Origin: Phycisphaerae bacterium
GTDB lineage: Bacteria > Planctomycetota > Phycisphaerae > Tepidisphaerales > Tepidisphaeraceae
DNA length: 32,892 nucleotides
Assembly (NCBI GenBank): GCA_025924315.1
Contig: JAICIO010000061.1
Coordinates: 1-32,892, forward strand
Direction of reading: 5' to 3'
Positions 21,204-24,802 of this stretch are shown here, one piece after another. The notes under the pieces are model-generated. The model had not been told where the DNA came from and made no database searches. It saw only the letters and a program-made list of their open reading frames with translations. Made by a program: the position numbers and the translations under genes. Each line of letters opens with the position of its first letter. Positions within the stretch are counted from its first letter, which is position 1.

Positions 21204-22766
21204 TCATTTGCCCGCCACTGCTTCAACCAATCCGTCGACGTTATACGTTTCGGCCTCGATTGTCGGCGTTAGACCAAGGTCGCGGAGCGTCTGACTCGTG
21301 ATCGGTCCAATGCTTGCGATCTTCACGTTCTTCAGCTTCGTCGCGTAATTGCTTCCCAGCAGCGACACGAAATTCTTTACCGTGCTGCTGCTGGTAAACG
21401 TAACCCAGTTCACCTCGCCCGCGTCGCTCGCAGTCAACAGCTCATCGGGCAAGTTCTCCGCCGGCTTCGTTTCATAAACAGCGACGTCGCGAACTTCGGC
21501 TGCGCCGTGGGCTTTGAGTTGATCGCGGAGGATGGGTCGCGCGATGTCCGCGCGCAATAACAAGAACTTATGCCCCGCGATCTGGCCGTGGCCTTGCAGG
21601 GCATGCACCAACGCCTCCGCGACGAAATCATCGGGGCACAGGTTGACGTGGAGTGCAAGCTCGCGACGAATCGCCTCCGCGGTCGCGTCGCCGATCGCGG
21701 CGATGTCGGCGGTGCCGAAGACGCGCACGTCACGCTCCATCGCGTCCAGGCGTGCGCGCGTGAAGCGCACGCCGTTGGCGCTCGTGAAGATGATCCAGTC
21801 GTAATGGGCGGCATGTTTGATGGCGTCATCGACTTCGGTGAAGTCTTTCGGCGGCGCAAGGTCAATTGTCGGCGCTTCGATCACGCGAGCGCCGAGCGCC
21901 TCGAGTTTCTGCGACAGCGCACTCGCCTGCTGCCGCGTGCGCGTGACGACGATCGTCTGACCGAACAGCGGACGTGATTCGAACCAGTTGATCGCCTGGC
22001 GCATCTCAACGACACGGCCGACGATCGTGATCGCCGGCGCGCCGATCTTCGCCTCCGCCACTTTCTGCACGATGTCGCGCACCGTGCCGGTGACGGTCCG
22101 TTGCTTCGGCGTCGTCGCCCACTGTATCGTCGCCGCCGGTGTTTCGCCGCTCATTCCGTTCGCCATCAGCTTTTCGCAGATGCGCGGCAGCGCTTTCACG
22201 CCCATGTAGAACGCGATGCACGGCAGCTTCGCGACGCTGGCCCAGTCGATATCGCTTGAGCCGACCGCTGCATCGCGCGAGCGGCTTTCGGACTCCTTGT
22301 ACTCCTCTTCCTTCTCGTGACCGGTGATCAGCGTGAAGCTCGAATTGAAATCGCGATGCGTGACGGGAATGCCGGCGTAAGCGGGACCTGCAATCGCAGC
22401 AGTAATGCCGGGGACCACTTCGAACTTTACGCCCGCCGCCGCGAGCGCTTCGCACTCTTCCCCGCCTCTTCCGAACACAAACGGATCGCCGCCCTTTAAG
22501 CGCACGACGCGCTTGCCTTCTCGCGCTTTTTCCACCAGCAGCGCGTTGATCTGTTCCTGCGTCATCGAATGCGACGCGGCTTTTTTCCCGACGTAGATCG
22601 TTTCCGCCCGGGGGCAATAACTCAGCAGCCGTGGATTCGATAAATAGTCGTAAATGACGACATCCGCCTGGTCCAATAATGCGCGCCCGCGCACTGTGAT
22701 CAGCCCCGGGTCTCCGGGACCTGCACCCACCAGAAACACCACACCTTTTGAATCTTTGCCGCTCAA
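21204..22766 (-). CDS. cobA-hemD: Uroporphyrinogen-III C-methyltransferase / uroporphyrinogen-III synthase fusion
   Basis: A bifunctional tetrapyrrole enzyme of about 520 aa. The N-terminal SUMT domain uses SAM to make precorrin-2 and has FLVGAGPGDPGLITVRGRAL, VVIYDYLSNPRLL, VVRLKGGDPFVFGRGGEE and VVPGITAAIAGPAYAGIPVT. It carries a charged insertion (EKEEEYKESESRSRDAA) at about residues 150-170. The C-terminal HemD domain (about 255-520) cyclises hydroxymethylbilane to uroporphyrinogen III and has IVVTRTRQQASALSQKLEAL and WIIFTSANGVRFTRARLDAM. I chose the TTG at 22766, with GAGG 6 nt upstream and the usual short lead-in to the SAM motif; the ATG at 22826 lacks a ribosome site. The product feeds siroheme or cobalamin synthesis. 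Confidence 0.93.
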   Translation of the reverse strand: MSGKDSKGVVFLVGAGPGDPGLITVRGRALLDQADVVIYDYLSNPRLLSYCPRAETIYVGKKAASHSMTQEQINALLVEKAREGKRVVRLKGGDPFVFGRGGEECEALAAAGVKFEVVPGITAAIAGPAYAGIPVTHRDFNSSFTLITGHEKEEEYKESESRSRDAAVGSSDIDWASVAKLPCIAFYMGVKALPRICEKLMANGMSGETPAATIQWATTPKQRTVTGTVRDIVQKVAEAKIGAPAITIVGRVVEMRQAINWFESRPLFGQTIVVTRTRQQASALSQKLEALGARVIEAPTIDLAPPKDFTEVDDAIKHAAHYDWIIFTSANGVRFTRARLDAMERDVRVFGTADIAAIGDATAEAIRRELALHVNLCPDDFVAEALVHALQGHGQIAGHKFLLLRADIARPILRDQLKAHGAAEVRDVAVYETKPAENLPDELLTASDAGEVNWVTFTSSSTVKNFVSLLGSNYATKLKNVKIASIGPITSQTLRDLGLTPTIEAETYNVDGLVEAVAGK

Positions 22767-22825
22767 GAAGTGCCTCAAAATTGAACGAAAGTTGGATAAA
22801 CCTTTACGCCTGCGCGGTCGATGCA

Positions 22826-22873
22826 TTGGGTAGCGACTGGAAGGTCGCCCAAGCTCACGGATGGCTATCCGTG
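22826..22873 (+). promoter_or_regulatory. Structured 5' leader of the PilZ gene (two hairpins)
   Basis: Hairpin 1: TTGG-(GTA bulge)-GCGAC, loop TGGAAG, GTCGC-CCAA (22826-22852). Hairpin 2: CACGGAT-GGCT-ATCCGTG (22856-22873). Both lie 25-70 nt before the PilZ start. They do not match the known c-di-GMP riboswitch layouts that I can recall. Possible cis-regulatory RNA. Confidence 0.3.
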
Positions 22874-23324: not shown

Positions 23325-23438
23325 ATGGACCCCCTCTCCCTGGAAGGGTGAGGGTTAGGGTGAGGGTCGAGCGTGAGAGTCATGAAGCGCTGTTTATTTG
23401 ACCACACGTCAATCGTCATCCAGAGAGCGTGTCATCTT

Positions 23439-23516
23439 TAACGTGGCGAGGGCGTCTCGCCCTCGGACTTGCGGCTATAGCCGCGTTCGCGAGGGCAAGA
23501 TGCCCTGGCCACGTTA
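23439..23516. repeat. Triple-hairpin inverted repeat, family A (copy 2)
   Basis: Outer arms TAACGTGG / CCACGTTA. The core has GGCGAGGGCG-TCT-CGCCCTCG, the central palindrome GCGGCTATAGCCGC and GCGAGGGCA-AGA-TGCCCTGG. It is slightly more diverged from copies 1 and 3 than they are from each other. Confidence 0.85.
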
Positions 23517-23525
23517 GAGGATCAC

Positions 23526-23603
23526 ATCCTCTGAGCGAAGAAGGATCCCAAGACCGAGACAGGCTCTCCCGAACTGGAGATCCTTCGCTTCGCCCAGGAT
23601 CAC
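23526..23603. repeat. Inverted repeat, family B (copy 2)
   Basis: Arm 1 ATCCTCTGAGCGAAGAAGGATC and arm 2 GATCCTTCGCTTCGCCCAGGAT, imperfect complements. It lies directly after family A copy 2, the same A/B pairing seen at the left edge of the window. Confidence 0.7.
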
Positions 23604-23683
23604 GCTCGCGGTGTAGGGTATCGAAACGATTCGACGCGATTCGCCCTCACCCCCCACCCTCTCCTTCCAGGGAGAGGGGGTAA

Positions 23684-24802
23684 TCACGCCCTGTACGTCC
23701 CCCCGCTCCTTCGGTTGTACTCCTCGCGTTTTTTCGCTTCCGCCTCACCATAGAAGAACGAGAGCAGCACGAACCGTCGCCCCGCCGTCACGTCGGTCGC
23801 TTCATGCAGCATCGAGCAGGAGAAGATCACGGCGCTGCCCGCTCGCGGACGGTAATGATGCACGCTGTGCTCGGGGAAACGGAGGTGTCCGCCTTCGAAA
23901 TCGTCGTTGAGCAAGAGCGACATCGCGAAGCGACGGTGGGCGGTGCCTTCGGTGGTGTTGTCGCGATGCGGGCGGAAATACCCGCCGCGGCTCGCGTCAT
24001 AGCAGGCGACGCGAAAATCCTCGAATCGCGTCGCGTTGTAGTTGAACGCCTGAAAGATTTGCGGAACGATGTGAATCCCGATCTGCTGCTTCACTTGGTC
24101 GAGAACTGGTCCGGATTTGAGAAAATGATCCCGGCGGATCTTGTGGTTGTAGTCGTATTGGCCGACGGTCTTGCCGTCGATCTGCTTCATGAAGCCCGAA
24201 TCTTCATTCCCCTGCGTCTCCCACGTCTGAACGAGCTCCCGGCAGAGTTCGGGTGAAAGAACGTTTCGCATCAGGAGCACCGGCGCGTGCTCGACGATCA
24301 ATCGCGACGGCTCGGGAAAGAGCAATTCGCGTGCGTCGGCCAACACCTCGGCGGCGTGATGTTTCGGCGCGATCTCGTCGTAGCGCTTCACGATGCGCAG
24401 TCCCGCGTTCATCAGAAACGTCGATTGCGAAATTGTCAGCGCGCTCGGACTCTCCGGATTCGGCGAAGCGATCCCCAGTTCAAACGCCGCGTGCGCATCG
24501 GCGTCGCTTGCGAGCGGGTACGGCAGGCCGAGCGTCTGCACCCACTTCTTTTGCGTCTCGACATCCTGTACGCCCACGCCGACGACGTTGATGCCGAGCT
24601 GTTGAAACTCGGGATACAGATCGCGAAACCCCGTGACGATTTCCGCGAAGCCATCGACGGCGTCGCTCAGATAAAAAAAGAGCACGAGCGGTCTGCCGAG
24701 CAGATCGTTCGCGTCGACTTTTTTGCCTTGCGTCGAAGGAAGTGAAAACGCGGCGGTGTATTCGCCCGCGCCGCGCGGTCGGTTCAATGCCGCGGTCGTC
24801 AT
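23684..24802 (-). CDS. Peroxiredoxin-like / prolyl-4-hydroxylase-like fusion protein
   Basis: A 372-aa cytoplasmic fusion. Residues about 14-165 align with the thioredoxin-fold of AhpC/BCP peroxiredoxins (FFYLSDAVDGFAEIVTGFRD, INVVGVGVQD, LPYPLASDADAHAAFELGI). Both positions that hold the peroxidatic and resolving Cys in BCP are replaced (Phe52 and Thr57). Residues about 170-355 form a 2-oxoglutarate/Fe(II) oxygenase domain of the prolyl 4-hydroxylase type, with metal ligands H279, D281 and H333 (RPHRDN, MLHEATDV) and R343 as the 2-oxoglutarate partner. The oxygenase half therefore looks active and the redoxin half non-catalytic. The start at 24802 has AGGAA upstream; the frame stays open to 25186 without recognisable content. 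Substrate unknown. Confidence 0.88.
   Translation of the reverse strand: MTTAALNRPRGAGEYTAAFSLPSTQGKKVDANDLLGRPLVLFFYLSDAVDGFAEIVTGFRDLYPEFQQLGINVVGVGVQDVETQKKWVQTLGLPYPLASDADAHAAFELGIASPNPESPSALTISQSTFLMNAGLRIVKRYDEIAPKHHAAEVLADARELLFPEPSRLIVEHAPVLLMRNVLSPELCRELVQTWETQGNEDSGFMKQIDGKTVGQYDYNHKIRRDHFLKSGPVLDQVKQQIGIHIVPQIFQAFNYNATRFEDFRVACYDASRGGYFRPHRDNTTEGTAHRRFAMSLLLNDDFEGGHLRFPEHSVHHYRPRAGSAVIFSCSMLHEATDVTAGRRFVLLSFFYGEAEAKKREEYNRRSGGTYRA

What the first reader, a model, noticed from the sequence alone, without database searches (positions are those of the whole stretch)
23684..24802. Peroxiredoxin-like domain without cysteines fused to an intact prolyl-4-hydroxylase domain
Gapless alignment of FYLSDAVDGFAEIVTGFRD to the BCP motif puts Phe52 and Thr57 where the peroxidatic and resolving cysteines belong, and the activating Thr is Val49. 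The oxygenase half keeps H279, D281, H333 and R343. The redoxin fold has probably become a binding or sensing module for an Fe(II)/2OG enzyme.
Basis: partly seen in the sequence, partly recalled or inferred. Interest (0 to 1): 0.6.

Follow-up and report, generated by a model that had tools for sequence, protein, structure and literature searches.

The report
Hydroxylase carrying a dead peroxiredoxin domain
This bacterial gene fuses an intact iron-dependent protein-hydroxylase domain to a peroxide-scavenging fold that has lost all its catalytic residues; relatives in several phyla show the same loss at different stages, so the old enzyme half was probably kept as a structural or binding module.

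Summary
Window 23684-24802 (minus) encodes 372 aa: a PrxQ/BCP-type redoxin domain (residues ~8-163) and a P4H/PHD-fold Fe(II)/2OG oxygenase (~164-365). The redoxin half contains no cysteine. Activating Thr, peroxidatic Cys and catalytic Arg are V49, F52 and Q126; H279, D281, H333 and R343 are intact. AlphaFold2 gives a confident two-domain model.

I collected 143 fusion homologues, mainly from Cyanobacteria and Alphaproteobacteria, with some from Planctomycetes. Only 26 keep the peroxidatic Cys (13 of 123 before I enriched for near relatives), 8 keep CxxxxC, and 1 keeps the full Thr/Cys/Arg triad. The four oxygenase residues are present in at least 122 of 123. Close Cys-less pairs show purifying selection on the redoxin half. 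Two Moorena-type genomes encode the oxygenase without it.

Best explanation: a protein hydroxylase with a pseudo-peroxiredoxin scaffold or substrate-binding module. Binding is inferred, not shown. No operon partner is conserved, the substrate is unknown, and I found no paper describing the fusion.

The parts
23684..24802 (-). Gene for the redoxin / Fe(II)-2OG oxygenase fusion, 372 aa, ATG start, stop codon included
   Evidence: Open reading frame; homologues cover the full length
24314..24781 (-). Redoxin (PrxQ/BCP-type) domain, residues ~8-163, no cysteine
   Evidence: Pfam AhpC-TSA 4.1e-21; VIA-align Z about 23, rmsd about 2 A to PrxQ/BCP structures over residues 8-163; no Cys
24620..24676 (-). 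Former peroxidatic motif, residues 43-61 FYLSDAVDGFAEIVTGFRD: V49 for Thr, F52 for peroxidatic Cys, T57 for resolving Cys
   Evidence: Gapless alignment; T, C and C at the three positions in 19, 19 and 18 of 19 stand-alone redoxins
24425..24427 (-). Q126, position of the catalytic Arg of peroxiredoxins
   Evidence: Arg in 19/19 stand-alone redoxins, 24/123 fusions
23708..24313 (-). P4H/PHD-fold Fe(II)/2OG oxygenase domain, residues ~164-365
   Evidence: Pfam 2OG-FeII_Oxy_3 6.2e-15; separate model pLDDT 91.4; Z 20.0 to algal P4H 3gze, 19.7 to P. putida P4H 4iw3
23960..23968 (-). H279-x-D281, first two Fe(II) ligands
   Evidence: 123/123 and 123/123 in fusion homologues
23804..23806 (-). H333, third Fe(II) ligand
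   Evidence: 122/123
23774..23776 (-). R343, inferred 2OG-binding Arg
   Evidence: 122/123

Best explanation
The protein is a P4H/PHD-fold Fe(II)/2-oxoglutarate-dependent hydroxylase, probably acting on a peptide or protein side chain, with an N-terminal pseudo-peroxiredoxin. The redoxin half descends from a PrxQ/BCP peroxidase that was fused to the oxygenase. The fold was kept while the Thr/Cys/Arg active site was dismantled in steps and more than once. It now most likely serves as a non-catalytic scaffold that stabilises the oxygenase or helps hold its substrate, loosely comparable to the thioredoxin-fold PDI subunit that keeps collagen prolyl 4-hydroxylase soluble and competent. Shown here: the domain make-up, the loss of active-site residues, its breadth and repetition, conservation of the oxygenase site, and purifying selection on the redoxin half in close Cys-less pairs. 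Inferred: the direction of change (loss rather than gain), hydroxylase activity, a peptidyl substrate, and the scaffold or binding role.
For: Both domains pass curated cut-offs and fold confidently. The redoxin half is structurally PrxQ (Z about 23) but lacks Thr, Cys, Cys and Arg. Only 26/143 fusions keep the peroxidatic Cys and 1/143 the full triad (13/123 and 1/123 in the less biased set). H, D, H and R of the oxygenase are in 122-123/123. Intermediates exist (residues at 49/52/57/126): TCRR (L111), ICCR (L088, L026, L028), NCRR (L122), RCSY (L024), SSLF (L185), VFTQ (window). The tree needs four changes of peroxidatic-Cys state; starred branches force at least three changes of the Cys-less label. 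dN/dS of the redoxin half is about 0.07-0.45 in close Cys-less pairs, against about 0.03-0.57 in the oxygenase half. Oxygenase-only versions exist in Moorena-type genomes inside the near group, so the oxygenase is the core activity. The oxygenase half's best structural matches are peptidyl hydroxylases: algal P4H with peptide, P. putida P4H with EF-Tu, PHD2 with HIF. The window genome has 24 AhpC-TSA domains including a canonical BCP, but a single 2OG-FeII_Oxy_3 domain, this one. PDI as a thioredoxin-fold partner of a P4H catalytic domain: PMC9676403.
Against: No assay, binding partner or substrate is known, and gene neighbourhoods show no conserved partner. P4H-fold enzymes also include ones acting on small molecules. 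The oxygenase folds alone in prediction and exists alone in Moorena, so the scaffold is not always needed.
Confidence: 0.6

Rival explanations
1. The redoxin half is a redox or peroxide sensor that switches the oxygenase, as a thiol switch in the Cys-bearing cyanobacterial members and by some other means in the rest.
For: Cys52 (and Cys57 in 8 members) is kept together with Arg126 in 21 of 26 Cys-bearing fusions. Three cysteines in the oxygenase half are nearly invariant (C187 122/123, C329 121/123, C267 109/123).
Against: The window protein's redoxin half has no Cys, and 117/143 fusions lack the peroxidatic one. The activating Thr is replaced in 25 of 26 Cys-bearing members. The oxygenase cysteines stay conserved whether or not the redoxin Cys is present.
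Confidence: 0.15
2. Two linked functions in the ancestor: the peroxiredoxin protected the oxidation-prone Fe(II) centre from peroxide, and the module became vestigial once other peroxidases took over. Today it is a passenger kept only because it helps the protein fold.
For: One near relative (L111) keeps the full triad; the window genome has many other AhpC-TSA proteins; the redoxin half is relaxed relative to the oxygenase half; it is absent in Moorena-type genomes.
Against: dN/dS in the redoxin half stays well below 1 in close pairs and the domain is kept in nearly all members across several phyla.
Confidence: 0.17
3. Local degeneration of one gene in one genome, with no wider meaning.
For: The window protein sits among relatives that still carry Cys52, so its own loss is separate.
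Against: Most fusion homologues have lost the site; the reading frame and all oxygenase residues are intact; the only close relative in the same family, L003, has also lost it.
Confidence: 0.04
4. The redoxin half is still an active peroxidase or reductase using other residues.
For: The fold is intact.
Against: No Cys at all in the domain and no consistent replacement at the peroxidatic position (Ser, Ile, Val, Ala, Gly).
Confidence: 0.02

Closest known systems
PrxQ / BCP peroxiredoxins (E. coli Bcp, Xanthomonas PrxQ 5iiz, Burkholderia 5enu)
   Same: Fold over residues 8-163, Z about 22-24; core sequence motifs (G13, F43, D100) shared
   Different: Thr, peroxidatic Cys, resolving Cys and Arg all replaced; fused to an oxygenase; far below the NCBIfam equivalog cut-offs (47 vs 260 and 43.6 vs 140 bits)
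P. putida prolyl hydroxylase (4iw3, EF-Tu), algal P4H-1 (3gze), PHD2
   Same: Fold of the oxygenase half (Z 18-20); HxD...H plus 2OG-binding Arg
   Different: 15-20% identity; these have no redoxin domain; substrate here unknown
PKHD-type hydroxylases PiuC / 3dkq and lysyl hydroxylases LH3
   Same: Best sequence-profile matches in the PDB (1e-7 to 4e-4)
   Different: Below the NCBIfam cut-off for PKHD (34.8 vs 143 bits); no redoxin domain
Collagen prolyl 4-hydroxylase with PDI as beta subunit (PMC9676403)
   Same: P4H catalytic domain paired with thioredoxin-fold domains that provide solubility and a competent conformation
   Different: PDI is a separate subunit that keeps its CGHC cysteines and bridges the catalytic domain through disulfides; analogy only
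P-DUDES peroxiredoxin-like domain (SRPX, CCDC80; PMC3091736)
   Same: A peroxiredoxin-like domain without the canonical peroxidatic Cys
   Different: Different family (Pfam scan of the window protein gave no such domain); the paper's text does not mention 2-oxoglutarate or hydroxylase
Peroxiredoxin-nitroreductase fusion (PDB 4eo3)
   Same: A peroxiredoxin fused to another enzyme; Z 21.5, rmsd 1.4 A to the redoxin half
   Different: Partner is a nitroreductase, not a 2OG oxygenase

Membership tests
PrxQ/BCP peroxiredoxin | Peroxiredoxin (AhpC-TSA) fold | tested here: met
   Pfam AhpC-TSA 75.6 bits vs cut-off 26; Z about 23
PrxQ/BCP peroxiredoxin | Thr/Cys/Arg catalytic triad | tested here: not met
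   V49/F52/Q126; 19/19 stand-alone redoxins have the triad
PrxQ/BCP peroxiredoxin | Resolving Cys five residues after the peroxidatic Cys | tested here: not met
   T57; Cys in 18/19 stand-alone redoxins
PrxQ/BCP peroxiredoxin | NCBIfam equivalog cut-off | tested here: not met
   47 vs 260 bits and 43.6 vs 140 bits
P4H/PHD-fold Fe(II)/2OG oxygenases | 2OG-FeII_Oxy domain | tested here: met
   56.4 bits vs cut-off 27; 59 of 60 aligned homologues match
P4H/PHD-fold Fe(II)/2OG oxygenases | HxD...H facial triad and basic 2OG-binding residue | tested here: met
   H279, D281, H333, R343; 122-123/123 in homologues
P4H/PHD-fold Fe(II)/2OG oxygenases | Double-stranded beta-helix fold of prolyl hydroxylases | tested here: met
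   Z 20.0 to 3gze, 19.7 to 4iw3, 18.6 to PHD2
P4H/PHD-fold Fe(II)/2OG oxygenases | Hydroxylation of prolyl residues | not testable with these tools
   Needs an assay; substrate unknown
PKHD-type hydroxylase (PiuC/YbiX) | NCBIfam PRK05467 equivalog cut-off | tested here: not met
   34.8 vs 143 bits
PKHD-type hydroxylase (PiuC/YbiX) | Gene next to a TonB-dependent receptor | tested here: inconclusive
   A TonB receptor lies near the Niveispirillum homologue, but no partner is conserved across loci

The most novel reading that the evidence does not exclude
A widespread, uncharacterised family of bacterial protein hydroxylases in which a captured peroxiredoxin has been turned, several times independently and through living intermediates, into the substrate-recognition module of an Fe(II)/2OG enzyme, with the cyanobacterial 1-Cys and 2-Cys members coupling hydroxylation to redox state.
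Probability: 0.2. Interest if true: 0.68.

Novelty: new variant of a known kind. Interest (0 to 1): 0.45.

Why it matters
The family offers a natural series from a catalytically intact redoxin (L111) through 2-Cys, 1-Cys and Ser forms to a Cys-free one, all fused to the same oxygenase. That makes it possible to test directly how an enzyme fold is kept after its chemistry is lost, and whether a bacterial protein hydroxylase needs a thioredoxin-fold partner as collagen prolyl 4-hydroxylase does. It also flags many proteins annotated simply as '2OG-Fe(II) oxygenase' or matched as AhpC/TSA whose redoxin half should not be read as a peroxidase.

Tried and rejected
Viral contigs: no relatives. Plasmids: fusion relatives only in Niveispirillum and Rhizobium leguminosarum. 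Operon partner: neighbour ORFs of 78 loci were clustered; the recurrent clusters are ABC-type ATPases at scattered distances, two-component proteins, or neighbours shared by close relatives only. Literature: eight searches of the held library found no description of a peroxiredoxin-2OG oxygenase fusion; subscription journals are mostly missing, so absence there is not shown. dN/dS for distant pairs is saturated and was disregarded; only close pairs are used. VIA-align on the full model was filled by the redoxin half, so the oxygenase half was predicted and searched separately. The redoxin-domain tree has few columns and many open forks; the oxygenase trees are preferred.

Full report
Observation. 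The gene at window 23684-24802 (minus) encodes 372 aa with an AhpC-TSA/redoxin domain and a 2OG-FeII_Oxy_3 domain, both above Pfam's curated cut-offs. V49, F52 and T57 stand where Thr, peroxidatic Cys and resolving Cys belong, the catalytic Arg is Q126, and the redoxin half has no Cys. The metal ligands H279, D281, H333 and the Arg R343 are present. AlphaFold2 gives pLDDT 92.9 for the whole protein; residues 8-163 match PrxQ/BCP structures at Z about 23. The oxygenase half, predicted alone (pLDDT 91.4), matches prolyl hydroxylases of proteins best: algal P4H 3gze Z 20.0, P. putida P4H bound to EF-Tu 4iw3 Z 19.7, PHD2 about 18.5. By sequence profile the nearest solved relatives are PKHD/PiuC and lysyl hydroxylases.

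Breadth. Full-length relatives were found in the window's own family (5 of 26 genomes, the window's included), hardly elsewhere in its phylum (1 of 392), in 20 of 292 cyanobacterial genomes, 57 of 291 in one cyanobacterial order (near-type search) and 50 of 240 alphaproteobacterial genomes, besides Planctomycetes, a Deltaproteobacteria MAG and an Anaerolineae MAG. The window and L003 carry the cyanobacteria-like type, while G005 and G001 of the same family fall in the alphaproteobacteria-like clade. With the near absence from the phylum this suggests horizontal transfer (inference).

State of the active site. In the first 123 fusions the peroxidatic Cys is kept in 13, with no preferred substitute elsewhere (Ser 24, Ile 21, Val 15, Ala 14, Gly 13). 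After adding near relatives (a deliberately enriched set) it is 26 of 143, CxxxxC in 8 and the full Thr/Cys/Arg triad in one, L111. All 19 stand-alone redoxins of the comparison set keep the triad. The oxygenase's H, D, H and R are in 122-123 of 123. C187, C329 and C267 are also highly conserved there, for reasons unknown.

History. On the oxygenase-domain tree the window protein lies with L003 (94/86) next to L111, L183 and the L024 group (81/73; 87/69), whose members mostly keep Cys52; the 17-member cyanobacterial 1C/2C group is separate (100/98) and so is the large Cys-less clade (100/99). Four changes of peroxidatic-Cys state are needed, and starred branches force at least three changes of the Cys-less label. 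The tree is unrooted, so loss rather than gain is inferred from the stand-alone peroxiredoxins, all of which have the Cys. Placement of the window protein itself is only moderately supported and moved slightly between trees.

Selection. In close pairs with unsaturated dS the redoxin half of Cys-less members has dN/dS of about 0.07-0.45 and the oxygenase half about 0.03-0.57. The domain is therefore maintained, though less strictly than the oxygenase (entropy 2.48 against 1.41 bits). Two Moorena-type genomes encode only the oxygenase with no redoxin upstream and fall inside the near group.

Function. The window genome has 24 AhpC-TSA domains, one of them a canonical BCP (PGCTKEAC), and only one 2OG-FeII_Oxy_3 domain, this one. 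Peroxide removal is thus amply covered elsewhere and the oxygenase is the unique asset of the fusion. The best reading is an active protein hydroxylase with a pseudo-peroxiredoxin scaffold or binding module; PDI's role in collagen P4H (required for a soluble and competent catalytic subunit, PMC9676403) is an analogy, not a homology claim. Thiol sensing remains possible in Cys-bearing cyanobacterial members, not by the redoxin half of the window protein. No partner gene is conserved and the substrate is unknown.

Limits. The second sample was chosen for near relatives. Literature coverage is partial. Activity, substrate and the role of the redoxin half are inferences.

Noticed in passing
window 23329-23681: Two 38-nt inverted arms (23329-23366 and 23644-23681, 79% complementary) 277 nt apart flank a 42+42 nt inverted repeat (23436-23519) just downstream of the gene; the arm pattern occurs once in the genome at up to one mismatch.
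   Followed up: partly
window 23684-24802 minus, residues 187, 267, 329: Three cysteines in the oxygenase half are nearly invariant across fusions (122, 109 and 121 of 123), C329 four residues before the metal ligand H333.
   Followed up: partly
L058 5827-6624; L192 1332-1973: Moorena-type genomes encode the oxygenase alone, without a redoxin domain upstream, nested among the fusions.
   Followed up: yes
L023 5037-7619: The Rhizobium homologue lies beside an opposite-strand cluster DoxX / DNA-binding domain / DUF692 / DUF2282.
   Followed up: no
L024 3199-5679; L025 219-2681: The Laspinema and Phormidium homologues lie near a large same-strand protein with glycine/aspartate-rich repeats (GDDRIFGLEGND...).
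   Followed up: no
window 21204-22826 minus: Uroporphyrinogen-III methyltransferase-type domain fused to HemD.
   Followed up: no
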